Shown here one piece after another: positions 1-32,517 of a stretch of 64,000 nucleotides of DNA. This stretch comes from Silurus meridionalis (Eukaryota; Chordata; Actinopteri; Siluriformes; Siluridae). The DNA lies in assembly GCF_014805685.1 (NCBI RefSeq), contig NC_060886.1, positions 20,558,108-20,622,107 of the forward strand, given 5' to 3'. Position 1 is the stretch's first letter; each line of letters starts with the position of its first letter. A program made the position numbers and the translations under genes. Below the pieces are notes generated by a model. That model had not been told where the DNA came from. It worked only from the letters and a program-made list of their open reading frames with translations, and did not search any database.

Positions 1-1564
1 TGTCAGTTATAACACTGAGTTACAGCTGAGCACAATGAGACTTTACATAACTGAACATATATGATTAAAAAAAATATATTAAAATTTAAAGAAAATGGGT
101 TTCTAAATTTCAAGTCAGGTGTAGCTGAGTGTGATTTTTTCTACCAACTGTAAATTTACCAATAAGCTAGTAAGACTAGCTACTAAAAGTACATGTTGTG
201 AATCTCTCTTTTTTAGCAGATATTTGATGGAATATAATGTATATGTACACGACACCAAATGGCTTGTATGTGTTAGCCTCTATCAACAGCCATTACCTCC
301 TTGAGAGGAATTCAAACAAACAATAGGAAATGGACATACATAGAGGACTAAATCAATCAATTATTCAATCAATTATTCAATCAATCAAAGAAAAAAAAAA
401 ACAGAAATATACAGAGTTGTGATCTTTCTATGCTGTTCCTTGTTTAGGTGCACTGAGCTGGAATGTCCTCACAGTGGATGGAAAAAGACGAATTGGCGGT
501 GAGGACAATGGGTAAAGGCACTAAGATAAAACATGATCATTAAAGCACTCAGGTGAGATAAAGGTTAAAGCTAAAGAAGTGGTTAAATACTCTGTTCCTG
601 TGCAGGCAAAGTCTTCAGAAGTGGAGACATCACAGAAAACACCAAACTTTCCTGCAAATGAAGACACATACTGTAACATAGAATTGTACAAAATGGCCTT
701 TATTATATTTTTAAATGACCTGCAAAATTAAAATGAGCTTAGTTTAATACTTCTAAACAAAATGAACTAAAACATATAGCACTCATCACAATTACAACTG
801 TAAAGACTATACATTTAACATTATTTAAATTAGTATTACTGATAATACTTCAAAAAGCTTTAGGTATTTGTTATATACCGAAGTAAAACTGATGAAACTT
901 TAGATTGCTTTTAGCTGTTTTTTTACAGCATTCATTAATCATAAAAATTCTGTGAATTTTTTTGGACATTGCTCATTTCATGTGGTCAAATGTATTCATA
1001 AAAAGATGTATGTAAATGACACAGACAGTTTTTATTTTATTCTAGCCAATTTCAGCACTCTAACTGTCTATGTACTTGACATTTATATGTCAAAAAGACT
1101 AGATTAGAATTAGTTAAGTGTTTTAAGTGTTGATTAGATCTTCTCCTTTCATTCTATTTATATTTTTTTCTTGGATCTGGCATAACTATAGCTTGTCAAA
1201 TGCTTTATTATTGTTTGTCTCACTGTTATGACACCTGCATAAATTAGGGAACATTGATGTCAGGAACTGTTACCATGTAAATTTAGGTAGGTCATTTTTA
1301 GCTGAGAATCCCAAAAGGGGGGCACCTGGTAACAGGTTAAAACTAATATGTTTTATATGGGGGTAAACTGTGGTCATATGCATATAGTATGTAAAAACGG
1401 TCATATGGATGGAAGATTGTTACCACACAGCAGAGGCTAATGTATCAATTGCACTCTTTTATAACTGGTTTATAGCTGTTTCTTCAAATGCAAATTAATG
1501 TGTACATCTTATTGTATCGTTCTGTCTGCATTTATTTCTAAAGCAACGGGCACATTTTACTTAC
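1..1564. other. Sequence downstream of the last visible cobll1 exon; no gene recognised
   Basis: On the minus strand this follows the donor of cobll1 exon 12. I looked for the WH2 exon that closes COBLL1 in other vertebrates (pattern LL..I..G...LK) and did not find it in any minus-strand frame. Two short minus-strand open stretches near 605-652 and 440-505 have acceptor-like AG ends but no resemblance to the expected domain. A small AATCAATTATTC-type tandem repeat lies at about 350-385. Confidence 0.5.
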
Positions 1565-1702
1565 TCAGATGCAGTGAGCGGTAGGTCCGCTATTTGGAGA
1601 GAGTTCAGGTGTTCTCCTTTTCCACACATCCTCGTTTTCATCAACTGGAGAAGCATAGGAGTCACTGCTGCTCTTTCTCTGTCCATGCCCACTGTCCACA
1701 TC
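1565..1702 (-). CDS. cobll1: cobll1 coding exon 12, ending in an in-frame TGA
   Basis: The exon is 138 nt, 46 codons, phase 0 on both sides. The acceptor is actctgtag before GAT and the donor is GTAAGT at 1564-1559. It encodes a hydrophilic tail beginning [16 protein letters not shown] and ending [11 protein letters not shown], then TGA as the very last codon of the exon. The matching part of mammalian COBLL1, as I recall it, has an Arg at this boundary before the WH2-bearing segment, so a CGA to TGA change would explain the picture. That is inference. Confidence 0.75.
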   Translation of the reverse strand, partial: DVDSGHGQRKSSSDSYASPVDENEDVWKRRTPELSPNSGPTAHCI

Positions 1703-2571
1703 CTACAGAGTATATACACACATACACACATGCAGTTAGCGCTTACAAATATGTGTACTTATATACCCTTTTGTTCTGTCCCTCATAGAAAAATACTCCA
1801 GTATATAATTCATATCCACAAGTGTGTGCACATCACAAAAAAATAAAAAGGAGTGCACAAAAAGGCCTGTCGTGTTTATTATACACATAGAATGCGTGGG
1901 GTGCGGTCAGATAGCAGTTTAGTTCTAGATAACCAGATAATATGTTTTACATGAATACAGATGTAGATTTGCTGTTGTATAAAATATTAGGAATACCTTA
2001 GTGATATGGGCATGAGCATTAAGGGAGCAAGTAGGAAGCTTCCAGCTCAAGCACAGACCATGTTCATGTTAACTGTCATGCACTGATGTTCACTGCCCTG
2101 TGAGGATCAGTGTAATTTAAATGAAGCGATGAGACTGTTTATTTTGAGTTATAAGAAACAAACTAAATACTCTACTAAATACGCATATAAAATACATGGT
2201 GGGATTATATATGCATCTCAGAAGAGACGAATTATAAACTAGATCATGACTATCATGAAAAAAGCAGACAGTGCTGCTACCTCGTGCTAATGGGTATCAT
2301 GTACAGTAAACAAACCAATAAATAAATACAAATGGTTTAGATGCACAAATTATATTTAAATCCAAATAAAGACATTTGCAGCCATTAAAATACTACTACA
2401 TTCAGCAGCACTGAGTTACACCCCTCACATATACAGCAAATGCAAAAGGAGTAGGTAAATATTATGATGAAACAGCAGCCATGTCCTCTTGGAAATGATA
2501 GATAATTAAACACAGAATGTGTGAGCTGTGGAGTTATTCCTGACACTGATTTTACCCTTTCTCTCTCTCTA

Positions 2572-2633
<62 letters not shown>

Positions 2634-5600
2634 AGCTGTCCCTCAGGCAGCAGGCTGGTGATAGAGACATTGATACTGTGACACACCTCACATGCATGGA
2701 CATAAAGCAGAGAGAAACAAACACGCAGGATCATCTGTCAGTAAACACAATGGCACGCACACTCTATCCCATCATCAAACAAAAGCTTTTTTTTAGAGAT
2801 GTTGTGTTGTGATGCCACCAAGGAAAATGGCACATAAAAGGTTGAAAGAAAAGAACAGTGCTTTCCTCAGTTACAGAAGCTCAGAAAAGGTCTTTCCAGC
2901 AATTGATACACAAAATGGTTATACATCAGTCTAACAAACGCTATCACATTGACGTTGATGGATAATTGTGCAATTTGAGTGCCATTGTTTAACTATATAT
3001 ATTAGTAACAGTGGGGGAGGTGGTAGGCCAGTTGTTAAGGCATTAACAGGCTGCCACTCTTGGGCCCTTAAGCAAGACCCTTAACCCCAGGGGTGCTCAG
3101 TTGTTGGAATGGGGATAAAGTACACCGGTCCCAAGTCACTAACAAAACTAGGCCCTTGCCACCTCATGGCGAGGGAAAAATAATAATAAAAGATATATAT
3201 TAACAGTCCAAAAATATACAATTTTGAACCCTACACAAAACACATACTCACCCTGAAAGTGGGTAATTCAACAAACTCATCTGTCTCGCTGATCGCACAA
3301 CGTTTGGTCATTGACAAAGGCACCTTGTGGCTGCACAGCCTAGCAGGATTGTGGCTAATAGTCTGAGATCTCTTGACTGCAGTATTGACAGCCTGGGCAA
3401 AGCGTGATGGTGTGGACGAGGTGAATGGTTTTGGTGCTGCAAAACTCCGCAGCTTTTCCAGAGTCAGACCAGCAGTCGGTAAACTCGTTTGGCGGGCCAA
3501 AAGCGAATGCGCTGAGCCACCAAACACTTTCGTCTCCCTCGGAGAGGCAGCTGGACTAGAGCTTTCCATGTCCTTCTGCTTTAGTGGAGATGTTGGTGGA
3601 GAAATGTGCTGCTCCTCAGTAGTCTTCGTCTCCTTCTCCCACTGGATGGGTGGTGGAGGAGGGGGAAAGGTCTCCTGCAGAGGCCCATGGAAACTTTCTC
3701 TTTGCGGGCTAGCTAGTGGTTCTTTCTCCTCACTTAAACTCCTACTGCGCACCACTGCCGAGTTGACGTAACTTCCAGGTGTTTTTTTGTTTGGCGGTAA
3801 GCGGAAGGAAGCTGGTTTGGGCCTGGTTGCAGGTGGAACTTTCTTCTCCTTGGTCTGAGGAGTATGTGAGGAGTCTGAAGGAGATTTAGCAGTTGGGGAA
3901 ATTGACGGAGAGAGATCACTGGCACTATCAAGCCTGCGCTCAAATCTGGTGGGAGATGCCTCTGCTGCTGGCACTGTTGCTGTAGCTTTTTGACTTAAAG
4001 TCTCCACATTCACTTCCTGAACTCCAGGCACACTGGGAGCTTCGAGCGTCAGCTCCACCTCAAAAAAGCGCAGCTTGTCCAAGGACTTCGGAGGCACAAC
4101 CGTGTAGGTGGTCATGCCTACTTTAGGGATGTAATCACGGGTGAGTTCGTTTGAGGGCTTTGGCTCAGAGGCAACATAGTACTGTAGACTTCCAGGTTTA
4201 GTTGCTGAGTAAATCTGTGTGGACTTTTGATTTTTAAGATTGGGAGTCTGAATGGCTTTTGGGATTTCAGGGAGTTGAGTGGATGTGCATGCCTGTATAT
4301 TAAAATTTTGCGTAGAGGTTGGCCGAATTTCTTGTGTTTGGAACTCTTCTGTAGATGTGCCCATGTCTCGTTTTGGGCTCCATAAAGTTGCAGATGTAGA
4401 GACAACTGACTCCGGGACATGTATAAATTCAGTAGAGCTGCATATCTCTGTTTGAATTTCAGTGTGTGTCTGGCTATCACTAGTTGCAGTGAAAAAAGCG
4501 TTAGGCGTTGTTTGTACTGCAGCTACTGCATAACTAGGCTTAGTTGGAACCTGTGGCTCTGCTTGCTGAGTGTGTGTGACTTGCTGTATAGAATTCTGAG
4601 CTGCATCCAGTGGTGCAGTGCTCTTTTCCTTCATCACTGTAGAACATTCAGCAGTTAAACATGCCGTTTCAGTCTTCCCATCAAAATTGGCTGTATAAGA
4701 GAGGAAAATAAGAAAGTTGAGAAATCAGACCATAAACATTTCAATTTATAGGTACTTAACTGTAATAAAGTTGATTTTAAACATTTTTATTTTAGGGTTT
4801 AAAAAAAATTAAATGATATGGAAACACAACACACCATTGTTTGTTGACTTTAACAGGGTATTGGAATCAGTCTCAGTAAGATTTCTGTTGACCTCAGTGT
4901 CTGTCGCCAGCCTGTTAGGACAAAAATCATGTGAAGGTTTAGAAAACCAACCACCAATTCTACTATGTTTTTAAAACGAACTAAAGAGTAAACAGCCTTA
5001 TTTTCTTCAACTCAAAACTGTCGTACTTGCCATCTGTGGTCAGATCAGATGAAACTTCTTGTGAGCTCCCCCTAGGTGGAGCTACACTTTCCATCTCTGA
5101 ATCCTGAGTCGGGGAGGCAGTTTCTGCTCTGCCAGAGTCCAGAGACACGTCAACAGAAATGTTGACGCTGCTGTCATCCTCCAGAAGTTCTGGCAAAGGA
5201 CATAAGCTCTCATCAGGACTGGAGTGTACAGGAACGTCCGGAACCATAGGAGACTCCTGATTGTCTTGGACCTCTTTTTTTGTCAACCCTGCAACAATTT
5301 TTTAAATATGATAATTACATACTGTTCTGAAGGAAAACAGTTACGATAATTGCTGAACTATATATACATAAAACCTTTCTGAAACAAAACACTTAAGACC
5401 ATTTTAATTTAGTATACTATATCACCAGCTCTGCCAAGAACCCATAACTTGCCACATGCTTAAGTTTGTTTTATAATCTGCACTATCCAACATAATAAGA
5501 TATGTACACATTTGCAAACACACTGCTTGCAAAACATCTTAATCTTTTGTATTCATAATCTTTTCTGAAGCTGGCCTCAAGCTTTAGAACCTTGCAATGT

Positions 5601-8600
5601 GCATAGCATCAGTCTGATTTGCTCTTCCTACTCTTATGTATTTGCACTTCTGTACACCAGGCTGTGATGGGAAAACAAACATTTGAACACTGACACAATG
5701 AGCTCTTTTGAGCAAGGTGTACATACGGCCTCCCATCTTTAAAAGTTATTAGCGTTTTGTTTGATTAAACATGCCGAGTAAACATGGGTGGGTGTCCGCA
5801 ATGTCAGTCAAATGTCTCCTACTGCGAAAGTACTGCTTCTTGTGAATTAGTACTCCTCTAGTGTCAAAAATTAATAGGCTGTCTAGCAAAAGAGGGCAAA
5901 GGCATTCTTTCTTTAGTTCCCATTCACTTGATCCGTTTATTAAAATTGTGTAAAAAGCTACTTTCACTTGAAACTGTTAAAAAGGCTGATTTGACTCCAG
6001 GTTACATATTGGTTTTAATGTGTTCATTAACTTTTGAATCTTCGACTCAAATCGATGCCTTGATTATTCTGTGTCTGCTTCAGTTTTCAGAGTTGGCTCA
6101 GTGGCCATTTACAGCACGGGTTAATAAAGAGATCCGTATTCTACTCCTCGGCGGTGACCAGGAGCGGCTTACATAATGGGCTGATGGGAGCAGTGTTAGT
6201 GTGAGAGTGGAGCAGACAGGCCAAAGTGCTGCTGTGCCACATGGTTTTTCAGACTGAGTGGATCGCTCTTAATTAAGACATCACACTTCCCTGAGCCAGC
6301 CGCTGCATTCAGCACTTCAAGGGCTGTCGCTGGGGACTGGAGTGCAGAAGCAGTATTCAAAGAGAGCGCTTCTCTCTGCAGAGTGCTCTGTGATCGTTCT
6401 CTCTCTTCTCTTTCTCTTCCTGGAATAGTGAAGTGCCATAGAAATAGATAGTGGCGATAAAAGTCTGGGCTTTGCGCTCCTCTCCTACACAATTTATTTT
6501 TCTTTTATTTTAACTTTTTCTTTTTGCATTTTTACTTTTTCTTCATGCTCTATATCTTAATCTCCTTTTTTTGTCTTTTTTTCTTGCTGTCACCCTACCC
6601 CCCTGCATTTTTTCATGATTGTACTCCATGCCCCCCTCTCCTCCTATGTGAAGTTGATTATTGCTGTCAGCAGGGGAACGAAACAGCCCTGGAGACACAA
6701 GTGCTCAGAGACGATTCCAAACTTTGCCAACACTTTATTTCTGAGCCTTCAGAATCTACTGTTGAAATAATGTAAGACGTATCAAACTCTAATATCCTGA
6801 AAAAAAGGATATTAAAATGCAGCCCACAAACACAAAAAAGTGCAAATTGAGAGGGAAAATATTGTCGTGCAGAAGGAAAGTTGCAAAACCTTTTTTTAAA
6901 GATATATGCAGAAGAAGGCATACTCTTTAAAGGTTCTCTCCAGTCTCGAGAAGCTGCTTGTTTGTGGTTATGAACGACGAGCTGTGTCTGTCTGCAGATT
7001 CACATCCCTGATTAGAGTGCAATTACTCCCTAAAAGCAACGCCACCTTCACCCCTGTAGTTACTTTTTATTGAAAGTGCATGCTATCGCATCTAAGCAAA
7101 ACAATGCATTTTTACAAGAGCTTTTTGGCATAGGATCCCTGAGTATTTAATACATTTTGAAACGTAAAACATTCATGGTTACAATGAGAGCCCTTGTTAG
7201 GTCTCTTTCTCCTCACATTCTCTCACATTTGTCATATTAGTGCAGCGTTTGGAGGTATATCAATGCACACTCAAGTATAGTTCATCTCTTTAAAAAGACA
7301 TTTTAACTGCATTATTAATTGTTACTGCATTAGTACTCAGCTTGCAAAGCTCATAGTGCAGTCTTCTGTAGAAGCCACAAACACATGAGTCTGGCCAGCC
7401 ATCACAAACAAACAGACAACATCCTGGGTTGTTAAGTTTATATATTTGTTATCACAATTTGAACTGTCTTCCAGCTTTTAGTATTGACACCTACACTGAA
7501 ATGACTATGCAGCTATAGTATAACTTTCTTTCAGCTTCTCCCGTTAGGGGTCGCCACAGCGGATCCTCCGCACGTTTGATTTGGCATGTTTTTACGCTGG
7601 ATGCCCTTCTTAACGCAACCCTCCCCAATTTATCCGGGCTTGGGACCGGCACTGAGAGTGGCTGGGGATGGTTCCCTGACCGGGAATCGAACCCAGGTCA
7701 CAGCGGTGGGAGCGCTGCGTCTTAACCACTAGACCACCAGGGGACCGACTATGCAGCTATAGTAACAATTCCAAATGGACCATATCAGGTTTGGAGAACA
7801 GTGTGATTTCATTTCATACCCATTGAAATGTGGATTCTGTTCTGCAGTTTGTTTAAATTAGTTCAAAATCTTTCTAAACATTTCCAAACTAAATGTGAAT
7901 GCTTAATTTAATCTTTGAGTGAAGCAAGCTGAATAAGTTGTATGTCCAGGAATTGTAGATACAATTGTAAATAGAAAAAGTATCACAATTTTTTTTTTCT
8001 TTCAGCTTCTCCCATTAGGGGTCGCCACAACGGATCATCCGCATGTTTGATTTGGCACATGTTTTTGTGCTGGATGCCCTTCCTAACGCAACCCTCCCCA
8101 TTTATCCGGGCTTGGGACCGGCACTAAGGCTTGTGCAACCCTAATGGCTGGGGTTGGTTCCCTGACCGGGGATTGAACCCGGGCCGCAGCGTTGAGAGCG
8201 CCGCGTCCTAACCACTAGACCACCAGTCACTAATAATAATATCAATATTCAGTTCATTTAAATATAAGTCAACAATGTAAATAAAGGTGAAGGAATTATA
8301 AACATGACAACATGACATGCTAGCTAAAGTATTTGTTGTTCCTAAAATTTTTTTAACTACGACACCCCCCCATCCCAAATGTATAATTTATAAACTATAT
8401 AAGAAATAAAAGAAAATTATCTACACATAAAAAAAAAATCATGAGAAAAAGATACTGTTTGGAAAACATACAAACACTGGCATGAACATATAATTACAAT
8501 CTAAAGAAATGACAGAGAGAGAAAATGCTACCACATTGAGGTTGAGAAGCAACAACAAGCCAAGATGAAAGAAACCCCTTTTTGCTATATGCCCCCTTCT

Positions 8601-11600
8601 GGACAATATGTAAAGTCAAGTGCTTTAATTTCCTAGAGAAAAGAAATGAAAAAAGAAGAACTTCTTATCTTTTTCTCCATCATCTTCCTCTCATTATGTA
8701 GAAAATAAATTTAATATTAAACGATTAGTTGTAAAAACAGACACAGACTGTCTTTTAGAGGACGAAATAACATTAATAACAACTACCTAAAACCGCAGGG
8801 GAGCCCAAGCTACCACTTAATACCACAAAATATTTCTGTTAATCCACAAAAAGCATTTAATTACAACATACAAACACAGAATTTATAGTTCATAGATTAC
8901 AGCCTGTGGCCAAGACAATAATTCAAATTTGCTGGTGAAGCAATTTGATTATCTAGGTGTTTAATACATTTTAACAAATCCTATATATTTGCTGGGATGC
9001 TGCACTTGACACAAGGTAAAGTGTCTGTCGAAGGTTTGGAAACACCTAGTCTTTTAACATTTTTGAGACACATGCATATTTATTTTGTTTATATACAACA
9101 ATAATTTGTCACTGAATGACAGGAAGAAATAGTCTAAAATTTGAAATGTTTTTCTCTAACAGAAAAATGTAAGACAAAAGAGAAGATGTTAGCAGACCAC
9201 CTCACACCCACAGTCAAACATGAGGTGGAAGTTTAATGGTCTGGTGTTGTTTTGGAGCAGGGAAAGTTGGAGACTTATTCTGGGTGAAAGAAACACTAAA
9301 CCAACATGGCTTCCATTCCATAATTTAATGCAATGCAGTTCTGTCTGGACTGCTGCTAATTGGAACTAACTTCACCATACAACAAGACAATGAACTGAAG
9401 CATACATCCATGCTCTGTAAGCGTTATTCAGAAAGCAAACAGTGGGCTGGAGTGTTATCCTTCATGGAATGGCCTGCCCAGTCACCTATTGAACTGCTCT
9501 GGGATGAACTGGATCGCAACATGAGTATTTTAGCTGAATGTTTGAAGAAAAAAATTAAATAAAAGTTTCAATAAAAATAAAGTTTACCATCTGTACATGT
9601 ATTTATTTGTTTGGTTAAGGTAAATCTTCATACAGTTAAATCATCTAGTTTATTGCATATAAACAAAAGGAACATGCAAAAACAATCAAAGACTGGGTGT
9701 TTCCAAACTTTTGACAGCAATATATTTATGTAAATTCTATGGAATTTATTGACAGAGACTCTACTATTTCTGATTGGTTGGAGGGTGTTTCTATTATATG
9801 TAATATAAGTGATCGATATATGAATTATGAGTGTGAAATTGTTGAAACAGTGAATTTGTTTTAGTAGACAGCACAAAATGTAACCCAGCCATTAGGGTTG
9901 CACAATCCAGTGCACTCAGTGCAATCTTATTCAATCCCAGATAATTGGGGAGTGTTAGGAAGGGCATCCAGCATAAAACATGGCAAGTCAAATATGCGGA
10001 TCACAAACCTTATCTTAATTCCATACCGGAACAATCGAGGCACGGGTTACCAATGACCGCCGCAGGTTTTTCTAGTCAACAGGGTACTAATAAAAATTGG
10101 GCTACTGTTTGCCAAAGGAGGATAAGGAGAGGAGGAATACTTCAACAGAGACAGTAGGGAAAGGAGAAGTGTAGAAGAGTGGAGGTTTGGGTTTTTACTT
10201 TAAATGTTGGTACTATGGCTGGTAAAGGTGATAGCTGATATGATGGAGAGGAGAAAGGTAGATATGTTGTGTGTTCAGGAGAACAAGTGAAAAGGGAGTA
10301 AGGCCAGGAACATTGGAGTTGGGTTTAAACTGTTCTATCATGGTGTGGATGGAAAGAGAAATGCTGTAGGGGTGATCCTGTGTGATGAGGAGGTACAGAG
10401 AGTTTCTAAAAGGGAGATAAACGTGAAGCTGGAAGTTGAAGGGGTGCCTTTAGTGCCTATGTTCCACTGGTGAAACTTCTAGAAAGAGAAAGGAAGACAA
10501 AGAGACGTGGTGGTGGAATAAGGAAGTGCAGAAGAGCATTAGGAGAAAGAGGTTGGCGAAACAGAATTGGGATCGACAGAGAGATGAGAAAAGTAGGCAG
10601 GAGTTCAAGGAAATGCAGCATCAGGTGAAGAGGAATGTGGCCAAGGAAAAAGTATATGAGGCGCTGTATGAGAGGTTGGACACTAAGAAAGTAGAAAAGG
10701 ATTTGTACCTATTGGCCTGGCAGAGGGACCGAGCTGGGAAGGATGTGCTGCAAGTTAGAGCAATAAAGGATGGAGATGGAATTGTGTTGACTAGTGAGGA
10801 GAGTGTGTTGAGAAGGTGGAGGGAGTATTTGGAGAAGCTAATGAATAAAGAAAATGAAAGAGAAAAAAGGTTGGACAACGTGGATGAAGTGAAGCAGAAA
10901 GTGGATAGGATTAGTAAGGAGGAAGTGAGAGCAGCTATTAAGAGGATGAGGAGTTAAAAGTCGGTAGGACCAGATGACATACCAGTAGAAGCATGGAGAT
11001 GTTCAGGAGAGATTTGCAGTGGAGTTTTTAACAAGATTTAACAAGAATTCTGGAAGGTGGGAGGATGCCTGAGGAATGGAGGAGGAGTGTGCTGGTACCG
11101 GTCTTTAAGATTAAGGAAGATGTGCAGACCTGCAGTAACTACAGGGGAATAAAGTTGATCAGTCACACCATTAAGTTATGAGAAAGAGTAGTGGAAGCCA
11201 GGCTGAGAGAAGAGGTGACCATCTGTCAGCAAAGTATGGTTTCATCCCAAAAAAGAGCCCTACAGATACAATATTTGCTTTGAGAATGTTGATGGAGAAG
11301 TATAGAGAAGGTCAGAAGGAGTTGCATTGTATGTTTGTGGATATAGAGAACGCGAACGACAGAGTGGCGAGAGAGGAGTTGTGGTATTGTATGAGGAAGT
11401 CAGGTGTGTCAGAGAAGTATGTGAGAATGGTGCAGGACATGTATGAGGACAGTGTGACAGCAGTGAAGTGTGCAGTAGGAACGACAGACTGGAGGTTGGA
11501 CTGCATCATGGATCGGCTTTGAGCCCTTTACTGCAGTGGTGATGGACAGGTTGACGGACGAGGTCAGACAGGAGTCTTCATGGACTATGATGTTTGCAGA

Positions 11601-14600
11601 TGATATTGTTATTTGTGGTGAGAGTAGGGAGCAGGTGGAGAAGAGCCTGGAGAGGTGGAGGTACGCGCTGGAGAGAAGGGAAATGAAAGTCAGTAGGAGT
11701 AAGACAGAGTACATGTGTGTGAATGAGAGGGAGGGCAGTGGAGTGGTGCGGTTGCAGGGAGAAGAAGTGGAGAAGGTGGAGGAGTTCAGGTACCTGGGGT
11801 CAACAGTGCAAAGCAATGGAGATTGTGTTAGAGAAGTGAAGGAAAGGTTGCAGGCAGGTTGGAGAAGAGTGATAGCAGGAGTGATTTGTGATAGAAGAGT
11901 GAAAGGGAAAGTTTATAGGACTGTGGTGAGACCTGCATTGAGTAAAATACAGGAGGTGGAGCTGGAGGTTGCAGAGCTGAAGATGTTGAGGTTTTTGTTG
12001 GGAATGACGACGATGGTCAGTATTTAAAATGAGTTTATTAGATTGACAGCGCATGTAGTTAGTTTTAGAAACAAGGTGAGGGAGGCGAGATTGAGATGGT
12101 TTGGACATGTGCAGAGGAGGGACATGGGGAATATCGGTAGAAGAATGCTGAGGATGGAGCCACCAGGAAGGAGAAAAAGAGGAAGACCAAGGAGGAGGTT
12201 TATGGATGTGGTGAGGAAGACATGCAGTAATGTGTTTGAAAGAGGCAGAAAGAGGACAGGGGGGTATGGAGACGGATGATTCGCTGTGGAGACCTCTAAT
12301 GGGAGAAGCCGAAAGAAGATGAAGAAGAAGAAGAAGAAAAGGTCATTCTTTAAAAAGTAATGTTGACAAATTCATATATTAGCAAAGGGAATAAACACGT
12401 TTTGAAGGTGCTGCTTTTTAAAAAAAAATCACAGACAAATTTTGAGTGTTTTAACTCCTTTCTTAGATTAAATAATTTCAATCAACTCAAATATTTGCCT
12501 CAAGTAAAGGGATTCACACACTACACACAATCTAAAAGTTATCAAAACTGTATATCTAATGATACTATCTTGACCCGAATGGCAAACTATCAAATATAAT
12601 GTTTTGTTTTTGTCCCAATTTTATAACTAATAAAAGAAAAGCCCTTAGGATACTGTATGAAAAGAACAGTGGAAAATGTTTGTTCTAGTGGAAAATAGAA
12701 AGAAAATGTCTGTCTGTTGTTTAGTTTTTAAACATCACCAAAGCCTACTACATCCACTACACAAATTCCTGACTGGAACAACCAGCTCCCTGTAGCTGCT
12801 CAAGCTGTTCATGCCATAAATCTTCAGCATGATGCATTTGCTATACCTGTTTTGAATTTCTGTGTGTGCGTGTTTGTGTGTGAACTTGTCAAGCAATGTA
12901 GAAGCACACATTCAAATCTAGCGAAAGCTATTCTTCTACAACCGTTTATCAGCCCACAGCTTTAATAAAAACAGTAATGAAATTAAATCAATAGAACATG
13001 TTATCGAAAAACAGAAAAACACTCTAACTGGGGGAAAAAAAAGAAACATAGGACTCTCTAGGAGTTGTGCTTTCTCAAAAGAACCACTAGGAGGCAGAAT
13101 GTATACAAATTGAAGTCTTAACCAGTCTGCACTCTCAACATGCTCACTCACTGCTATGTCTCTCTGTTTACACGCAGGACAAAGTACAGCTGTTTATCTC
13201 TTTTCATGTGGGACTCTCAAAACTGTTTGCAGAGTAGTTAGATACCACCAAAAAGCAGATGACAAATGCATTTTTTAAATGAAATACATAACAACAAAAT
13301 AAATACAGGCTTTTGCAGATTATCCACTATTGCACTGTGGCTGAAAGGATGTTTTCAACACAGTGTACGGCAACAGCTTGGAAAACATGACTGGTGATAG
13401 ACTGTTCTAAGCTTTTACATCCTTAATAAATGCCTAAATGTTTACTAGCTGCCAGGGGACTGCAGACTCACCTGTTACAGTTGTATCCTGTGTTTTTTCA
13501 TCCTGGGTCACCGAGAGGCTGCTGGGAGAGGTTGGGGGTGGTGGAGCCTTTCTCTTACTCCTTTTCAGAGATGATTCGGTAGATAAACTTCGACCCAGGG
13601 ATGGCACAACCTTGACAATCCAGAGAAATAACTGACTACATTCACTCAACATAGAATTAGCCAGAATGATCTGGATTATATTTATTTAAAAATGACATGA
13701 ACAGTTTTGAGTGTAGTATGCAAGTGTAGTATAAATATTGTGTGTAGTATAGAAATAAATTCACACCCCAAAGATTGTAGCACACACTAATGCTGTTGTT
13801 ATTATTATTATCTAATTGTACAGGGTGTGCACTAATATGAAATGTAAATCTAAAGAAAAGTGTAATATAAGCATTGCATACCTGGTTGCCATCAGCATGA
13901 CTGATAGTTTGAGAGTTGCCGTTGTTATGGCTGAGGTCAGAGGGCTGCATCTGTGGAGGCAGAGGGGCCCGTCTCTTCTTCGGTGTGTCGGACGGCATAG
14001 TGTTCGAGTCGTACGTTGAAGAATGGATGCTGAATGAACTCATGCTCATGGGTCTTGATTTCCTGTTGGTTGGGGATGCTGGTGCACTCACAGTTGATGC
14101 CTTTTAAATGAAAAGAAATAGCAATTTCCTGACATTTACAGTCGTGCAAATAACCAATCTCTAACACTCGAACGCGGAATGAAATGAAGTCTTGGGGCCA
14201 GTTTTTAGACTGCAAAAGGCTGAATTTGGGTAAAAGGGCGAGGATGAACACAGACCAATGAAAAAGCTCAGGGTTTGTCCATGCAAAGCTTAAAGAGCAC
14301 CCAAAATAAACACGTCCTGAACTGCTTATGCAGTGGCAAACAAATTAGCAAAAAAAAAGCTTTGGAAATGCAGCTTTCTCTCTCTGTAGACTCTATAAAT
14401 ACTGTTTTAAACAATTTAACTACTAAACAATCTACCATCTTATGATATTAAACTGTTTTATATCAGCACCCACCTGATCAGGTTTCTTCTTGCTTCCTCT
14501 TCTGAACATGCCAAACAGTCCTTTATTTTCTTTTTCTTTCTGGAGTTTGTCCTTGCCAGGTTGCATAACATCTGGTTGAAAAATTCACGTTTATATAATT

Positions 14601-17600
14601 TATTATGAAATATTTATGTTTATATTGGGGGACAGAAACTGCAAAATGCATCATTTGTTAATTGTTATTGCACTATTTTATTGCACTATTGTATGTTGTA
14701 ATCTAATCTCAGACCCTCTAGATGAGTGTTGGTGTGTTTTGATCAATTGTGCCATTCACCTAATGCAGTCAAATGCAAATAATTTTAAGCAGAAGCAGTA
14801 CATCCAGGCCACATCCAGCCCAGTGATATGTTTTATCATCCTGTATGTGCAGCCTAATATGTATATATTAAGCAGACATTGTTATAAGTATATTACATTA
14901 CAGCTCATAATGACTGTTACCTGAATGAGTTGGCGATGGAGGGAAGTCTGTTGGACTGATAACTGTTCAAAGATGTACAGAAAGGTGAGTTAATAAAATA
15001 TCAGTGACAGCCAGCTAATCCTAGAGAACATAACTCTGAAGAAGTCAATATACTTCTGTGTTCAGCTGGATTTCTAATACGCCTTTAAAATTTCTAATAA
15101 GCCTTTTATATAAGCCTTTTATATTTCTAATAAGCCTTTGTTATTGTCATTACCCCGTGTGTCTCTGGCGTAGAGCTCCCTGAGGCAGAGGTCATTGAGG
15201 GAGTTCTTCAGGTCCAAAGGCTCCTGTGAGTGGACATTCTGCAGCAGCACGGTGCTCTGCACATCAAATTCACATTTCTCACAGATCGCGGGGAGCAGCT
15301 CCTGCAGAGCGAGCTTAGGGTTCACTCGCAAAATTGTCTTCTGGGTCCTTTTATAGTTTATTACTAGACGTACAGTAGCCTGAGGGAGACATGTGTGATT
15401 CAATGAATAAAAGAGATGAAAAGAAAAGGAGAAACAAAACTTGTGGATGTTTTCATTAAATACGATCAGAAATCAATATCTTATAAAGGCATTATAAATT
15501 TAATTAAACCATGACAAGTTTCTATAATTTATTTTCAAATGCAAAAAAATAATAATGTTTGCAGAATAATACATTTTGAGGATCCCTTAAAAAGATCTGA
15601 ACTTTACCTCTGGCATTTGTGGTCCAGTTTTCTTATTCTTGTCTTCCATGCCTTTGGGCTTGAGCAGAACTTTCTCAGCCTCCAGAGTTCCAATAAGAGC
15701 ATTGGGCTTGAATTTAATGTGGTTCTTGTTGGCAGAGACCAGCTCAATAGTGTGGCCTGATGGGTTGAGGTGGTACTTTGCACACAGCATAACGAGCAAG
15801 TCAATCATAGGCTTACTGTAAAAAACCACAGATTAGACTTTTATACACACATACACTTCTTATCTTTATAGTTTTACATTATCTCCACTGGATGGAGCTC
15901 TTGTGGAGGCAATGGTCTAGTGTTAAAATGAAGCTGCACCTCTTCACTTTCTTACATTATTATCTTTTTTTTTAATTTAAACATCAATAGTGGATTCTTT
16001 TTATTATTCCATGCAAAACACAATAATTGACCAACATAATAAAACTAAGAGACATTCAAAACTAAGGAGTTATGCATATAGCCAAAATTCTGAAATCTTT
16101 TTTCCTAACAATGACAGTGTTCTCACACAGGTCTGAGACAAAACTTCAAGTAAAATGTAAACATAATGTCGTTTTAAAGGTCATGTGGTCAACATGGCTG
16201 CTTGAATTAACAACAAGTAAATAAAGGCATTGTGCATTTGATACTCCAAACACTGTGCGCGTCAGCAAAAAGATGTTTAGCACACACGGTGTATTCATTT
16301 GCATGCAAAATGTCATACTAGTTGAAATAATCAAATTTTATGAAGCCTCTGGGTTTTAACCAAAAAACAGTCCTGTTTCTCTCAGGTTCAATCTTCTAAA
16401 CTTTAAACATTGTTGAAGCCCTTACACTTACAATACATTCCTCACTCTTACAGATGCCCATCTTATATACATATTAGTTGCAGATTATACTTTGAAATAA
16501 ATGCTTTGAATCATTAGCTGAGTTTAAGCAGCTAGCATGTAAGCAAAGTCAGCAATTTATGCTGCAAATAAGCTGTAGTATGTATGTATGGATGCTGCAT
16601 ACACTCCTATGAAGTGGAGGAATGTTTCTGCCATACAGGAGCATACTGAGTGTGGAAAATCCTTTAGTGACACAGAATGAGCAACATGATGCTTTCCAAC
16701 TGCTGCTGGAATGCCAGAATCTGAGAAGCTTTTGGAAATATACAGCAGCTACAGTTAAATCCTGAGGAAGAAAAGGTTGGGGACACTGCTAGCATCCCGG
16801 CAGAAAAGATGGGAAAGAATTTGATGCTTAATCCACCTAAACTGAACGTTTTTTCAGTTTGAGCCTAACAAGAGCAACAACATTTTAGTTCATTTGGTTT
16901 AATTAAAAACATGTTTTGCTCTTTGCTTAATTCGATTTTTTTGCAATGCAGAGAACTAAACCAAGACAACAGCACCATCAGTTGGCAAAAGAGAAAGCAG
17001 CACGTAGCTAATGAACGTTGATCACTTCGGAGAAGAAGATTAAAACAAAACAAAAGAAGATACTGAATTTTGATGGCTAAATTGCTGTAGTGTAAAAGGA
17101 ACCCATTGACCTCTAGACCTGAATCTGTTTGAAACCCGCTTTCATTTTCCAGCCTTTCCTTGGTGTAGCACCACCCATGTGACTCAGAAAAGGGAGCAAT
17201 TTCAGCTGTTTTAACACTGATGTAATGCACTGGTGACCTTAATGATCTCACTTATGTCTTTACAACTAAACTTCAATGAAGAATGCTTGGGAATATAAAT
17301 ATAGGGATTATATACAGTATAGGTGGGTCAGTGTTTAGCTTAAGCAAGACAATTAATGAAATTATTCTCCATACTGACTCCAAAATTGATCAGAATTTGA
17401 GATTAAAGACCCAATAAATATTGCATTAAATATTACAAACTGGCAAAAAGTATTAACTTCTCTCTAGTTGACTTTGGTAATGAACTTAGAACATGGTTCA
17501 GTTTACTGCAGTTCAAAAAAGTAATCAAAGTTATATGTATGATATAGAAGACTATATAGCACATTTTAAGGAAAAGGTAGCTAAGAGTTAACAACATTCG

Positions 17601-20600
17601 GTCACACAGGATACAGTCTCGCAGCTCCTTCTTAAGCAGCTCCTTATTGACAGTGTGTCATAAAGTATGTGTGTATTGTTACAATGTGCAAGACAAACAC
17701 AAAGCTCATATCATTATTCATGGTTGCCAAGTTCATAAAAAATTCAAAAATATGGATATCAAGATATATAGCTATAGAGTTGTTCTTACATTATACTGTA
17801 TACTGTATTGTGGAAAAACTATAAATTTTTCATCAATATAACATCAGATTTGGCTTAAAATATGAAACCTAAAAGAAAAGAAGTGAAGCCAGTTTCACAA
17901 TATGCACCTTTACCTGGAATGTACAAATCACTGTGGCCTCTTAAAAAATGTTTTAGCTGTATTGTGTGGAAAATGTCTGTTACTTAATATTAATTTCTTA
18001 TTTATACTGAACTGAAGTTATATTACACATACAACCATGCTGTGATATAGATACTCGCATGTCTGCAATTTCCTGCAGCACCAGACCTGTGGTTCTGTAC
18101 CTATGTACCTATACTTTTAATTGTATTTACCTATACTTTTAATTTATGTGAATGCATTATCTTAAGATTTGCTCATTTGCATTACCTTGGAGATTCCTTT
18201 TGAAATGAGCTTCTATTTGTGCTTGTGCAGTTCTTATTTTCAACCACTAGGTTTACTAATAATTTTACAGTATGTGGGGCAATGAACAGGATGATCTGTT
18301 CGCTCAACGTCTTAAAAAGCCAAATATAAGACTTAAATAAAATTTACCTTATTGATCACTCAAAAGTAGTAAAATTGAGCACCTTCTAGCTGTGAATTCT
18401 ACTCATGTAGAACGAGCTGCTAATGAAAGCACTTCTCTGGCAGCAGTTGAGTTTCATAACTATTGCAATTAGCTCATAGATCTGTGTTACAAAAGAATGA
18501 CTCCTTCATTACAAGCTGCCACCGAGAAAATGATTAAGTATCTGTTATTAATAACTACCGTAATTGCTTTAGTTCCCCAATGTATCCTATGTGTTTTAAA
18601 CCTAACTTTTGGAATACAAAAGACAGCCCATCGACAATCTGTACAGGACTGTCATTGAAGTTTATGCTTGCTTGTAGAACATGTGATTGACTGAGAGTAA
18701 AGTCCATTAGGAAGGACACTTCTTATTGCAAAACTTGTGTGCACATACATGCATATGTAGCATTGCATCAGAGTGACTACTAATTGCAGCATGTTATATT
18801 CTTACCCTTTTATGTGGTCTCTTTAAATGCAAAAATGGCAGTCTTTCCTGTCAGAGGATTATTTGGCTATAAATATTCAATTTTACTCCATATGTCATCC
18901 AAATCCTTCTCTGTTCATCAAAAAATGAACAGAATACCTTCTATAGCTAGGGTATCACTATTTGTGTTTATTTTTACTGTATAATATACCATTGGGCTAT
19001 GAATTCCTTATACTATATATATATTAAGTTGTCTGGAAGGCCATGGATTGAGAGGGTTAGGGTTAGAATACAAATATAAATTGAAAATTTATAAATTGAA
19101 AATACAAATATAAATTGATTGGTTTAATATTGGTGACAATCATTTTTTAGCATATTTTTATAAAAGAAATGTGAACAATGTGAAGAGGAAATCAGCATCA
19201 CTTAAGTCTAGTTGATAAATACATTCTTAAGACTACAAATTTTTATAGAAGCACTTCATAAAGCACATCAAGCAGCACCTGACTAATCATCCGCATAAAT
19301 CATCCACTTATTATCAGAGAAAACACTTTATCAGTGACAAACCATTTAAAGATATAAGGTCAGAAGTAATGAGAACCTGATCTTGAGGAGAAACTGATCA
19401 GCTCCACAGCACTACTGAATCTTCTGACATATTTTCAAGTGGCAGTCCCAGTACCCCGCTTATGACCATTCTCTGGTCTGAGTTAAATTCAAGCCTTGAG
19501 AACTTTACTAACAAAAGGTCTGAACTCAAATCCTGTACTGTCTCACTTCTGTAAATTTCTCACACAAGTCCCATGCAAATGCTGTACTGTCTTTGAGGTT
19601 GCATTGGGCTTCAGGGGAAATTAAAATACAGGAGTGCTGGATTGACTCACCTGGCATGGACCATTGTGGTCTTCTCCACTCCCTCAGGCAGCACAACTGT
19701 CAGTAACAGTTCTTTCTCCAGCATGTTTTCCTCCTGTTCCATGGTAGTGTGTGTTACTGCAGGGGCACGAGAAGACACCACTGCTGGAGGAAGAGGGGCC
19801 TTGTTTTTAGATGACCTCCTACAAAAGACAGAGCTAATGTTTAGGGCTGCAACAACTAATCGATAAAACCTAAAATAATCAATAACAAAATTCCTTGTCA
19901 ATGAATTGCGTTATCGATTAGTTGGGCTGCTCAAGTTACAGGTTAGTGTGATGGCAAGATAACACAGCCGCTTGCGAAATAGCGAAGAGAACAGGGTCAA
20001 CCGGCAGCAGGAAAAGTGTACGTCCCAAGTCACAGATGAAGGTGAAACATCAGCAAAAACTGTATATCCTTATCGTGTAAAAACTGTATATCCTTATCGT
20101 GTAAAAATGGTTCGTGATTCACTGCGGCTTTACTATGTCCTAATAAATGTTTTCAATGTTTGTATATTTCATTTATGCATAGATTATTTAATTATTATAC
20201 AAAATCATATTATTATATATTCTAAATGCTTATATCTATTTTTTAAACAAAAAATGTCAACACAATGTTATATTATATTTTATATAAATATTTTTAAGCA
20301 TGGTGGTCAACTTGCCATCTGCAATTATTATTAAAAATAATACAAATGTTGATTTACACAAATTGATTCACTTTACATACTCAAATGCTGTTATGTTTTT
20401 TTTGGTTTTGTTTTTTTTACAGAAAGAAACAACCCAGCATGAGCGAATTTGTTCAAAGGAGAAATCCCCAATGCACACCTCAACAAGCAGCCACTATAAG
20501 CTTTAAAAAATTTACAAATGAAAGATATTTAAACTCAAAATGTGGCCTTTGCATTTTTAAGTGCACTTTCATAAATAAATATGCTGAACTGCAGATTTTA

Positions 20601-23600
20601 TATATCTATAATAAGCAAAACATACTTTTTTTATATCCAATTAATCGATTATAATGTGATTGCTAATAATGTGATTTTGGCCTGAGATACACAAGAGTAT
20701 AGACACTGCTCTGATTATTTCAATACACATCTCTTGTGTCTTGGCTAAAAGCAATTATTAAGTGTGTTTAATCTATTATATCGTATGGAACTGAACTTAT
20801 GCAGCGGTCTGGCCTCTGATGATGAATGATCAAGTACTTGACTGGACTCCACCACTGAGCTAAGCATTTGTGGACAGTAAGAGAATATATCACACACAAT
20901 GTTTTCATCTTTAGATCATTTTGCTTTAAATTGGGATCTCCATCAATTAAGGGTAGTACTCATATTTTATATAACCTTAATACTGAAATACTTTGTGAGG
21001 TCCAAATACAGTACAAATATAATTCAAACTCATGCAGAGAGGCCCCTCAAAATATACACATACCAACATTACATGTATACAATATTGATAGTATGTATGT
21101 TTAAGTCATGCTTCAAGATCAAACTCATGGGAAAGTGTCACATAGAACACCATTTCAATGAACAATGAACAGCATATGGTATAGCTTAGATTTGATTTAT
21201 AGACTGCAGAGCAGTGTTGGGCAATAACGCGTTACTGTAACGCAGTTACTTTTGACAGTTACTAATACTGTAATGCATTACTTTTAAAATAAAGTAACTC
21301 CGTTACCGTATGGTTCGTTGACCGTTACTTTTATAAATGAATTTTGGCTGAAGTGTAGCCTACAGTCTAACCTGTTTACAGCAGCGACGCATTGTACGAT
21401 TGGTGGATGAACCACTGTTAACACACAGAAGACTCACTGTGGGCATGTCTCTGTTTATTCAGGTCTGTGCGGCAGTAACGGCGAGTCAAGGCGAGAGCAA
21501 GACGAGTTTCTCAAAGTGAAAATATGTTCATTATTTCAGTTTAGTTGAGCATAAAAACAACAACTTTTTAGTCAAATGTAAGCTGTGTCTTTCTGGTTTG
21601 AAGGTCGAATCTACTGCGATAGCAGCACCTTGAGAAACTCCATGCCTCGACGAAGCTAGAAGCTAGAAGCTAACCCGGTGTTGTGTTCTACATTGTTGAT
21701 AGTTTTCATACTTAAGCTGTGAAAGGAACATTTTTAAGAGCTTAACACAACAGCATTTATGATGCAGAAGCCATTTTTGATTGTGAATATATTATTCAGC
21801 TTGTTTTGATATTCATTTCAAAAATCCTTGTGATATATTCAGTTTGTGCTGGTCTGACTTTAATAAAATAGTGTATTAAAATTACTTTTTGTTTAAGTCA
21901 GTTTTGTGTTTGTATAGACCATAACGCATAAAAGGGCATTAATGGGAACGTTAAAGAACATTCTTTAAAAACTAAAAAGTTACTTTTAACAGTAACGCAT
22001 TACTTTTTGGTGTAAGTAATCAACTAAGTAATTGAAACTAGCAAAACACTGTTGCAGAGTTTGTATTTTTTGAAAAAATGTAAACAATCTGCAGCACATT
22101 CACGCTTCAGTAACTGGGTTAACTTAAACTGCTGCTAAAATAAGTAGCAAGTTCTTGTATTAGTTATGCTCAGCTTTTGTATTGGTCAGTCTTTCTGTTT
22201 GGTGCAACACTGAAATGTATTTTGTATGTGTCAACAGGCCATGTGACTGAGAGCAAGCCGGTAATTCCAGGAAACAAAAGATATTATTTACACATTGCTA
22301 CAACTTGATATACACAATCAATTCAAATGTCATCTACATGACTAATCGCAAATCTAGACTCCTTTCTCTGTAGAGCTTTTTGGCTTATTACAGAAAACAG
22401 TCTGATCTGAATAAACTCTGGGTGAAATGGGCTGTAAGTGATCTTTTATTTAAGACCCAAAGCCCAAAGCACTATTAAATGAAAAAGCCTGGCTCCACCT
22501 TACAAACAAGTTACAAGACATTTGAATGAAGTGATTTATTTAGGAGGATGAAGAAGAAAAAAAATGGGGCAGTTGATGAAAGCACAACAAATAAGATCCA
22601 TGCTAACTTCTTTAAGACCATACTTATGATAAACCCAGCTATTTAACACAACACTGGATTATAGAATACTCTGTGTTACTGTTGAAATATTTAGTTTAAA
22701 GGTTGAACAATGCAGACTTTATCTGTCAGTGGGGACCAGAGGAGTTGGTTGATATGCCTGAATAATCTAAACATGACAAAAGAGCAACTGGACATGTAGC
22801 ATATAGATATAACTCAAATTCCAAAGAAACATCTGCTGATCTGCTAACTCCAGCGTGCTATATATTATTTTAATGACATGACTGTGATCTGATTTAGTGG
22901 AATCCCTGTAGAGTCCTTCACTGAGAAGTAAATATCCTCCTGCTGGGGACAGAAAGCTCCAGAACATGTATATGTTTGGGCTTCAAGTTATCTTTAATTT
23001 GACTAAAAGTGAGAAAAAAAGTAAGCCAAAGCAAACACGTGATTTTTGTAGGAGTATAAGAGCAGAACATTAGATTTCATTTCAACCTTTAGACAGGAAA
23101 CTTATGGAACAAGTAGATTTGCTGTGTTCAAGATACAAAGACTCGCAGTGCTGCACATCTGCTTTATTTCCACGCATCTATTTTAGGAAACTTAAATACA
23201 AACATAAATTAGGCATGATGAATGTCTTCAGCAGCTAGTCACAGTACAATAACAATGTTTTAACTGCAGGAAGACAAACTGGTTTGACTTCTAAACCAGG
23301 ACATCAACTAAAAGTTGCTTTGGTTGTATATTAGGCTGTGCCAATATTCTACTGAAATTACGAGCTGGGTTTTCTGTGTAATAAATCTTCCTTGTTCTTT
23401 TGAACAAATTCAGTCATGTCTATCCTCTATCAGATTTGTTCGATGATGAAACTCTAAACCTGGATGTTCAAATTTAATTACTTTTTCTTTTGTGTGTGTT
23501 TTTTAGCTTTCAGGAGACGAATAACTAGAAACAAATTACTTTTGGAATAAAGTCCAATCTAGGCATTTGGATCTTAGAAGCATTAACAATAAAAAGAATA

Positions 23601-23641
23601 CATAAACCATTTTAATTGTCTTCAGTTCTAAAAATGTACTA

Positions 23642-23711
<70 letters not shown>

Positions 23712-25884
23712 TAACTCCTCAGATCATAACCGCGTGGGCGTGTCAGTTCACATACTGATTAGCAGCGGCGTCTCCCTGGCAATGTAAACAAGTTGGGAAC
23801 AGTGCTAACAAGTAAAAATGACAAAGCAAAGTTTCCACAGTGTGAATCATTGCATGGTGTGTATGGCATTTTGTCCAGATTTCTAGTGAAATGGTACTCA
23901 TAAAACAGCGAAATTAGGTAAGCCTGTGGCTTGTATGCTCTTTACTGCCATGCTAATTAAGAAAGCTGTAAGTATAAGAGTGGGCATAGGACATCTGTTT
24001 TAGTAAAATAATTTAAAATTAGCTTTTTATGTTGCCTAATATACTTTGCTACACTAAAAATGCTACAAATTCAGCAGATGCTTAATTCTGATTGTAACTG
24101 TGGTACACCTAAGGAGGATCATAAATCTTCTCCCTTTTTTACACCCTCACACAGTTCAACACTGCCCTACTGAGAGCGTCCAGAGTGGCTGCATTACTGT
24201 CTGTTTTGGCAGCTGAACTGCCACAAATGACCAAGCCCTGCAAAATGTGGTATTACAGCTAAATGAAATACAGTCAGGGACGTTTCCATCTAGTAGGAGC
24301 CTTCAAACTAGGCGGTGCAATCAAAGACAAACAAGTTGAGCAACAATTTTTATTTTCAGGCCATCAAACAACTAAATAACTGTGTGCTACTTTAAGAATG
24401 TTAAATGTTATCTAATTTCTCACTGTATCACTGTATTCTAAATACTTACTGTTAAACTCTACTGCTCTTTTGACTGTATGGACTCATCATCAGTTGCTCT
24501 CTAAGAAAATACTGCATACATTCACACTGTAATATTGTATTCTATACTCTATTTGTATTCACTGAAATGATCTCTTCTCGTCTCTTAAATGCTACTGGCA
24601 TACTGGGCATGTGACAAATAAAATGATTATTTTATAGTTGTATAGTTTTTTAATAATAAAACGATTCTAATTATACTAAAGGATCAACAACAAAAAAAAA
24701 TCGGCAAATAAATAAGTACATCTACAAAATATTAAACATATTAATTAAACACTGTCTAAATTTGTCAGCAATAATGATTCTAAAAAGAGGTTACGATGGC
24801 GCAATTTCTGCGGTCTTATTGGCTGAACACGTGCTCAAACACAGGTTCATTCTGTAAAGTTCCAAAGAGCCACAGTTTTGACAAATCCTCACCCTCTTTA
24901 CTGCAAAACTGGCATTAAACTGAAATGACGTACACTATTAATTTAGCTAAAATAATACCCTCCCCTCAAACGCCCGCACGCAACTGCTGCCATTAATAAA
25001 CGTCAAATAACAATCATAGAGCAGAGATGATTGCACTCATGTGAGTCAAAGAGACTCTGTGGACTGATGAAAAGTGATCGAGACTTTGGATGATAAATGT
25101 TTACTTTGAAAAATACCTCTGAAAGACATAGAAGCTTCCCGGTAGTGCTTGGTAAATGAGTTCAGTTTGCTCAGTGAAAGAGCTCTGTTTACCCCTCTGG
25201 CTCTAATATTCAGACAGGCATTTAAGTGCAATACACATGTGATGGGGCACCTCACACAAAGCCCTATTTGCACACAGTGGCATTGTGCTTTTTCAACACC
25301 TGACATGTTCCAGCCTGATGTGCCGGAGGCCTGCTCCTGCTCCAACTGGCTAACACCAAGATTTGATCACTGCACACTCATTCATCACCGACACACCTAA
25401 TTTCAGAGCAATCCTAACCGAAAATTGGCATTAACACTCTGATGGGAAAAAAAAACAATGCCATGAGACAAATAGTTTTCTCACACTTTTTCCTCATTAG
25501 ATTTATTGACATTTCAAGAACTTGTGAAGAACTATTGTATGACTGATACTCACTGAGTACAATAAGTTGTACAGTCAGTATAAAAAGGATGTTTCCCTTT
25601 GCCCACAAGTGCTTGAGTACTTCTTGCCGTTACACAGAATGTACCAATGCCAACTAAGCTCGTCGCACACAGTGCCACAGTAACATATGGTAACAGATGT
25701 TTGGTGGGCATTGGGCCTGCTTTGTTTCAGAAACACCTGGTGCTGGAAGAAGTATGCAGCACAGCTGTAGATAGTTTGCATGCCCTTAAAAGAAGGGCTC
25801 AGGAGCCAAGACCGCATGCAGAAAGCTGCTAAGAGCATGCAGCGTTCAAACACCTATAAACGCAACAAACAAGTACTAATGATT

Positions 25885-25966
<82 letters not shown>

Positions 25967-26972: not shown

Positions 26973-27064
<92 letters not shown>

Positions 27065-31604: not shown

Positions 31605-31663
<59 letters not shown>

Positions 31664-32430: not shown

Positions 32431-32517
<87 letters not shown>

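What the first reader, a model, noticed from the sequence alone, without database searches (positions are those of the whole stretch)
1565..1702. cobll1 terminal exon ends with an in-frame TGA placed exactly at the splice donor
The exon is 138 nt, phase 0 in and out, followed by a consensus GTAAGT donor, so it is built to be spliced onward. Yet its last codon is TGA. Family knowledge: COBLL1 normally goes on to a WH2 actin-binding segment, and its mammalian sequence has Arg near this point, so CGA to TGA (a CpG transition) is the simplest history. The result would be a COBLL1 lacking its WH2 domain, or a lineage-specific ending.
Basis: partly seen in the sequence, partly recalled or inferred. 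Interest (0 to 1): 0.75.

Follow-up and report, generated by a model that had tools for sequence, protein, structure and literature searches.

The report
Ordinary conserved stop of catfish cobll1b
The stop codon sitting right at a splice-donor-like site looks like the normal ending that this actin-related gene has in many catfishes, and the actin-binding piece it seemed to cut off appears to have been lost in far older fish ancestors.

Summary
The exon is real: 138 nt on the minus strand (1702-1565), phase 0, last codon TGA, followed by GTAAGT. P0002, [quoted passage not shown], on a contig of the window's contig length, ends at exactly this TGA. Of 11 catfish proteins listed, 7 end at the aligned codon (H-C/Y-I/L/V), 1 two residues earlier, and 3 are other models. 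So it is an old shared ending, not a fresh CGA-to-TGA hit. Nor did it remove WH2. Among 185 proteins fetched (capped lists), a WH2 profile rings strongly in 6, all sturgeon or paddlefish (4 built it). Gar has a copy lacking key residues; the next best scores 3.8 bits. The profile recovers three WH2s at the presumed cobl locus of this genome, but nothing above chance level at presumed cobll1a or here. An exon-like stretch downstream (651-583) resembles an older tail and is in frame if the 138-nt exon is skipped. If GTAAGT is used, it makes a stop-proximal 3'UTR intron, as in 861 zebrafish genes. Low interest. Splicing is untested; 5 kb beside the window is withheld.

The parts
1565..38089 (-). 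cobll1b gene, coding part of the annotated model P0002 (1028 aa)
   Evidence: tblastn of P0002 against the window
3252..4690 (-). large penultimate coding exon (1439 nt), ends ...ELPTF AGG|GTGAGT, phase 0 out
1565..1702 (-). 138-nt exon, last coding exon of P0002
1565..1567 (-). in-frame TGA, the stop codon of P0002
1559..1564 (-). GTAAGT, splice-donor-like hexamer directly after the stop; use untested
1531..1536 (-). AATAAA, 29 nt after the stop; possible poly(A) signal of a composite terminal exon
583..651 (-). presumed relict or alternative last exon, TTTGCAG|GAAAGT..., ESLVFSVMSPLLKTLPAQEQSI*; in frame if the 138-nt exon is skipped
   Evidence: local score 46 against the Hemibagrus guttatus tail, 200 shuffled tails mean 32, maximum 42; a Colossoma tail does not single it out; in-frame junction

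Best explanation
The TGA is the normal stop codon of cobll1b in catfishes. SHOWN: this species' annotated protein ends there, and relatives from both catfish suborders end at the aligned codon; the exon is about as conserved among 8 catfish as the neighbouring part of the protein; the WH2 profile finds no match above chance in the teleost COBLL1 proteins fetched or at this locus, while sturgeon proteins have one. INFERRED: in a catfish ancestor this exon came to end in its own stop, so the older tail exon (now 651-583) is 3'UTR in the main transcript and coding only when the 138-nt exon is skipped. If the GTAAGT donor is used, the intron starts 0 nt after the stop. That is a stop-proximal 3'UTR intron, usually spared by nonsense-mediated decay because the terminating ribosome displaces the junction complex (recalled rule; a minority of such transcripts are sensitive, PMC7310861). 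WH2 was lost far earlier, on the line to teleosts, so this ending costs the protein no actin-binding domain.
For: P0002 [Silurus meridionalis], on a contig of the same length (33,553,502) as the window's, ends ...GPTAHCI. Of 11 catfish proteins, 7 end H-C/Y-I/L/V at the aligned codon and 1 two residues earlier; the 3 others are an exon-skipping model, a fusion model and an early-ending model. Two of the seven were checked as Siluroidei and Loricarioidei. Mean pairwise identity over 8 catfish is 0.71 for this exon, against a median of 0.69 for 549 windows of 45 aa in residues 390-983; the last 10 residues are less conserved, 0.56. WH2 profile on 185 proteins: 6 at 61-81 bits, all acipenseriform (4 of them built the profile); gar 16 bits with TLL changed to TSL and LKK to QKN; next best 3.8 bits. 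In this genome the profile finds three WH2s at the locus that I take to be cobl (9.8-15.7 bits), best 4.8 bits in 30 kb of the locus that I take to be cobll1a, and only chance-level hits at this locus. Stop-proximal 3'UTR introns: 861 zebrafish genes (PMC7310861, passages).
Against: No RNA evidence: whether GTAAGT is spliced, and whether the exon is skipped, is unknown. The relatives are protein models, many automatic, 90% clusters, and only the best 120 of 1378 and of 426 hits were listed; longer isoforms may be hidden. No DNA of relatives was available, so their exon borders are unseen, and MAFFT aligns the catfish ending with the start of the characiform tail. The profile has limited power: the best hit in the window is 8.8 bits (other strand, 40 kb), close to the weakest presumed cobl WH2 (9.8), and gar scores like a cobl WH2, so 'decayed' rests on its changed residues. 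The 5000 bases left of the window are withheld. Three of 11 catfish models do not end here. No tetrapod COBLL1 was retrieved, so 'WH2 is ancestral' rests on sturgeon plus the literature.
Confidence: 0.87

Rival explanations
1. Composite terminal exon (compatible with the TGA being the normal stop; it concerns only how the 3' end is made): the 138-nt exon runs on into 3'UTR and is cleaved after the AATAAA 29 nt past the stop; GTAAGT is a weak or decoy donor whose U1 binding might tune polyadenylation against splicing.
For: AATAAA at 1536-1531; the donor's exonic half is non-consensus; cyprinid isoforms ending MGTWV could be comparable run-on past a donor (inference from proteins).
Against: GTAAGT is a perfect intronic half, and in 7 of the 8 characiform and gymnotiform proteins aligned the related stretch goes on to a further tail (the eighth is marked partial). 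AATAAA is common here: 101 on the minus strand of the window.
Confidence: 0.4
2. Recent nonsense mutation (CGA to TGA) truncating COBLL1 and removing its WH2 domain in this fish.
For: TGA is one transition from CGA; mouse Cobl-like has a single C-terminal WH2 (PMC8282341 passages).
Against: Same stop in 7 of 11 catfish models; no Arg in that alignment column; no WH2 above chance in the non-acipenseriform proteins fetched except the altered gar copy; none between this exon and the stretch at 651.
Confidence: 0.03
3. Exon skipping is the main form: the big exon joins 651-583 directly, giving ...ELPTFRESLVFSVMSPLLKTLPAQEQSI*, and the 138-nt exon is a minor switch exon.
For: The junction is in frame; the Hemibagrus guttatus model P0009 has this form; its tail aligns above shuffles.
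Against: 8 other catfish models include the exon, and its sequence is as conserved as its surroundings; P0009 is a 'hypothetical protein' and no Silurus record of this form was seen.
Confidence: 0.12

Closest known systems
Cordon-bleu protein-like 1b (cobll1b) of teleosts; Cobl-like/COBLL1 of mammals
   Same: Cobl ubiquitin-like domain (PF09469, E 1.2e-33), KRAP-type stretches KKRRAPLPP and KRKAPPPP in the sequence (motif named in PMC8282341 passages), and exons that I take for grb14 downstream on the same strand (by recall and by models P0127 and P0176)
   Different: No C-terminal WH2 detected; the catfish ending replaces the tail seen in characiform and gymnotiform models
Sturgeon/paddlefish COBLL1 (P0123-P0126, P0184, P0185)
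   Same: Same protein family and overall order up to the tail
   Different: Keeps a WH2-like segment (IRNTLLDAILSGDGAAKLKKV); one Huso huso model lacks just that segment (P0128)
Genes with a stop-codon-proximal 3'UTR intron (861 in zebrafish, PMC7310861 passages)
   Same: A donor-like site within 50 nt of the stop
   Different: Here at 0 nt and with splicing unproven

Membership tests
COBLL1 (cobll1b) | Cobl ubiquitin-like domain PF09469 | tested here: met
   115.8 bits, cut-off 25
COBLL1 (cobll1b) | Full-length similarity to named cobll1b proteins | tested here: met
   P0002-P0008 at 74-98% identity over 97-100% of the query
COBLL1 (cobll1b) | Single C-terminal WH2 as in mouse Cobl-like | tested here: not met
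   profile; Pfam, which also misses the sturgeon copy; the same holds for the other teleost cobll1b proteins fetched, so it does not exclude membership of teleost cobll1b
COBLL1 (cobll1b) | Next gene grb14 on the same strand | tested here: inconclusive
   GRB14-like exons at window coordinates about -34860 and -38800, recognised by recall and by likeness to fusion models P0127 and P0176; no family search was run on them
Stop-proximal 3'UTR intron gene | Donor less than 50 nt after the stop | tested here: met
   GTAAGT at 0 nt, as sequence only
Stop-proximal 3'UTR intron gene | Intron actually spliced in mRNA | not testable with these tools
   no RNA reads
Recent nonsense allele | Stop absent from close relatives | tested here: not met

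The most novel reading that the evidence does not exclude
COBLL1 lost its only actin-binding WH2 module near the origin of neopterygian fishes (intact in sturgeon, altered in gar, not found in teleosts, in both presumed cobll1 copies of this catfish, while presumed cobl keeps three). Teleost Cobl-like would then act on actin only through partners, and the free C-terminus has since drifted, in catfish to a stop placed exactly at a splice donor that toggles between two short tails.
Probability: 0.45. Interest if true: 0.4.

Novelty: already known. Interest (0 to 1): 0.13.

Why it matters
It removes a false lead: the apparent truncation is the annotated, shared end of the gene. The by-product matters more. 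The teleost COBLL1 proteins fetched seem to have no WH2 domain, so zebrafish cobll1a/b mutants may not model the actin role of mammalian Cobl-like. I saw no statement of this in print, but only in the listings of four searches and passages of three papers, so that is no claim of priority.

Tried and rejected
WH2 exon left of the window: 40 kb fetched (L002-L005), but the 5000 bases next to the window read N. In the other 35 kb the best profile hit is 5.1 bits, and exons that I take for the start of grb14 begin about 7.5 kb to the left (by likeness to the tail of P0010 and recall).

PF02205 was a poor tool: Pfam does not report it even in three sturgeon/paddlefish proteins with the segment, and its 24 genome hits at E <= 1 lie neither at this locus nor at the presumed cobl locus. 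I therefore used a profile from four acipenseriform sequences, with the presumed cobl locus as positive control; that locus is called cobl because it has the Cobl domain and these three WH2s, so the control is partly circular.

A search with the sturgeon WH2 for other relatives returned 7 proteins of 65 candidates, all acipenseriform.

My first joined model read one small exon in the wrong frame; P0002 shows the right reading.

In the draft I called the last nine codons of the exon a catfish extension without counterpart. The alignment does place outgroup residues there, so it is now only an inference that this ending is new.

Idea that the final residues HC(I/L/V) form a sorting or PDZ motif: not pursued, no fit to a motif that I recall.

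Full report
What is there. On the minus strand, 1702-1565 is a 138-nt open stretch flanked by CTCTGTAG and GTAAGT, in phase 0 after a 1439-nt exon (4690-3252) that ends TTC AGG|GTGAGT; its last codon is TGA. A stop triplet in front of GTAAGT occurs at 3 of the 24 GTAAGT hexamers on both strands of the window, this one included.

Which gene. The window is G000:C3:20558108-20622107 on a 33,553,502-base contig. The best protein hit, P0002, 'cordon-bleu protein-like 1b isoform X1 [Silurus meridionalis]', sits on a contig of the same length, maps exon by exon to 38089-1565 on the minus strand, and ends ...[11 protein letters not shown], that is, at this TGA. It has the Cobl domain PF09469. To the left, on the same strand, lie exons that I recognise by recall as grb14; two fused models, P0127 (named as a GRB14) and P0176 (named GRB14), support the reading.

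Is the stop a lesion? Of 11 catfish proteins in the list (best 120 of 1378 hits; Silurus, Pangasianodon, Hemibagrus wyckioides, Neoarius, Tachysurus, Clarias gariepinus, Trichomycterus) end H-C/Y-I/L/V at the aligned position. Ictalurus furcatus ends two residues earlier. The other 3 are Hemibagrus guttatus (skips the exon), Clarias magur (a fusion model) and Bagarius (ends early). Trichomycterus is Loricarioidei and Silurus is Siluroidei. The exon is as conserved among 8 catfish (0.71) as windows of the same length elsewhere in residues 390-983 (median 0.69 of 549 windows), though its last 10 residues are less so (0.56). In 7 of the 8 characiform and gymnotiform proteins aligned, the related stretch runs on to a tail such as ...SSGSVVSPVICPVPKSSPDAAQCQEE; the eighth (Prochilodus) is marked partial. 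In the alignment column after the Silurus end, 8 rows have Pro, 1 Ala and 5 a gap, while the 8 catfish rows have ended; none has Arg. So this is an old catfish ending, with no support for a recent CGA-to-TGA change. Exon borders of the relatives were not seen.

Where did WH2 go? Mouse Cobl-like has a single C-terminal WH2 (PMC8282341, passages). Sturgeon and paddlefish proteins carry a WH2-like segment directly before the last ~24 residues. A profile from four of these, run on the 185 proteins in hand (the window's own 45-aa exon among them), gives 6 strong matches (61-81 bits), all acipenseriform; four of the six built the profile and match by construction. Of the 9 acipenseriform proteins the other 3 are a partial, a fusion to GRB14 and a Huso model lacking just that segment. 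Gar has a changed copy (16.3 bits; TLL to TSL, LKK to QKN), and the next best protein scores 3.8 bits. Pfam's WH2 model does not report even the sturgeon copy, so absence of PF02205 alone means little. In this genome the profile recovers three WH2s (9.8, 11.1 and 15.7 bits) at the C4 locus, which I take to be cobl: a fair but partly circular control. In 30 kb after the Cobl domain of the C1 locus, which I take to be cobll1a, the best is 4.8 bits. In the window the best is 8.8 bits (E 0.4, plus strand at 40 kb), not far below the weakest cobl hit; in the last 3300 bases on the gene's strand the only row is 4.4 bits (E 9.4) at 1556-1512; in the unmasked left flank the best is 5.1 bits.

The presumed old last exon. 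At 651-583 on the minus strand, after CTTCATTTGCAG, is ESLVFSVMSPLLKTLPAQEQSI*. It scores 46 against the tail of the Hemibagrus guttatus model; 200 shuffles of that tail, searched over the same minus-strand segments, gave mean 32 and maximum 42. A Colossoma tail does not single it out. It is in frame with the large exon if the 138-nt exon is skipped. In sturgeon the WH2 lies before the last tail, so its place in Silurus would be 1564-652, fully inside the window. The homology of this stretch with the sturgeon tail itself is inference along a chain of diverging tails.

How it probably works. Main form: translation stops at TGA. The transcript either splices from 1565 to a downstream exon, making a 3'UTR intron 0 nt after the stop, or is cleaved after the AATAAA 29 nt past the stop. 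Neither is shown. Stop-proximal 3'UTR introns are common, 861 zebrafish genes by one count, of which 3.5-8% of those detectable rise at least 1.5-fold when the junction complex or UPF1 is lost (PMC7310861, passages). Minor or alternative form: skipping gives the other tail. Either way the protein loses no WH2 that its teleost relatives still have.

Limits. No transcripts; relatives only as proteins from capped lists; 5000 bases left of the window withheld; no tetrapod COBLL1 retrieved. Passages of PMC11898890 and PMC11063382 and the outline and abstract of PMC8555832 were also seen; they do not bear on the catfish ending.

Noticed in passing
P0010, P0127, P0176 (protein models); left flank L002-L005: Three models in different fishes (Clarias magur, Acipenser ruthenus, Polypterus senegalus) run from COBLL1 into what is or looks like the neighbouring GRB14; P0127 and P0176 join to the same GRB14 stretch (VIKVYNE...), P0010's tail is GRB14 by recall only. 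Annotation run-through or real read-through transcripts.
   Followed up: partly
P0085 (Lepisosteus oculatus), residues about 1058-1101: Changed WH2 in gar COBLL1 (HKTSLEAVQSGDVAAKQKNV), an apparent intermediate in loss of the domain.
   Followed up: partly
window 10450-12030 (+ strand reading), inside the cobll1b intron 13472-5288: Decayed reading frames that look like a non-LTR retrotransposon reverse transcriptase (recognised by eye).
   Followed up: no
window about 8220-7990 and 7740-7540, minus strand: Two copies of a tRNA-like repeat (GGTGGTCTAGTGGTTA...), probably a tRNA-derived SINE (recalled).
   Followed up: no
G000:C1 locus taken for cobll1a (L036-L038), end of its large open frame: The large frame runs into ...GCACAGTAAGTC: its in-frame TAA lies inside a GTAAGT, so if that donor is used the stop appears only when the intron is retained. 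Splicing not tested.
   Followed up: partly
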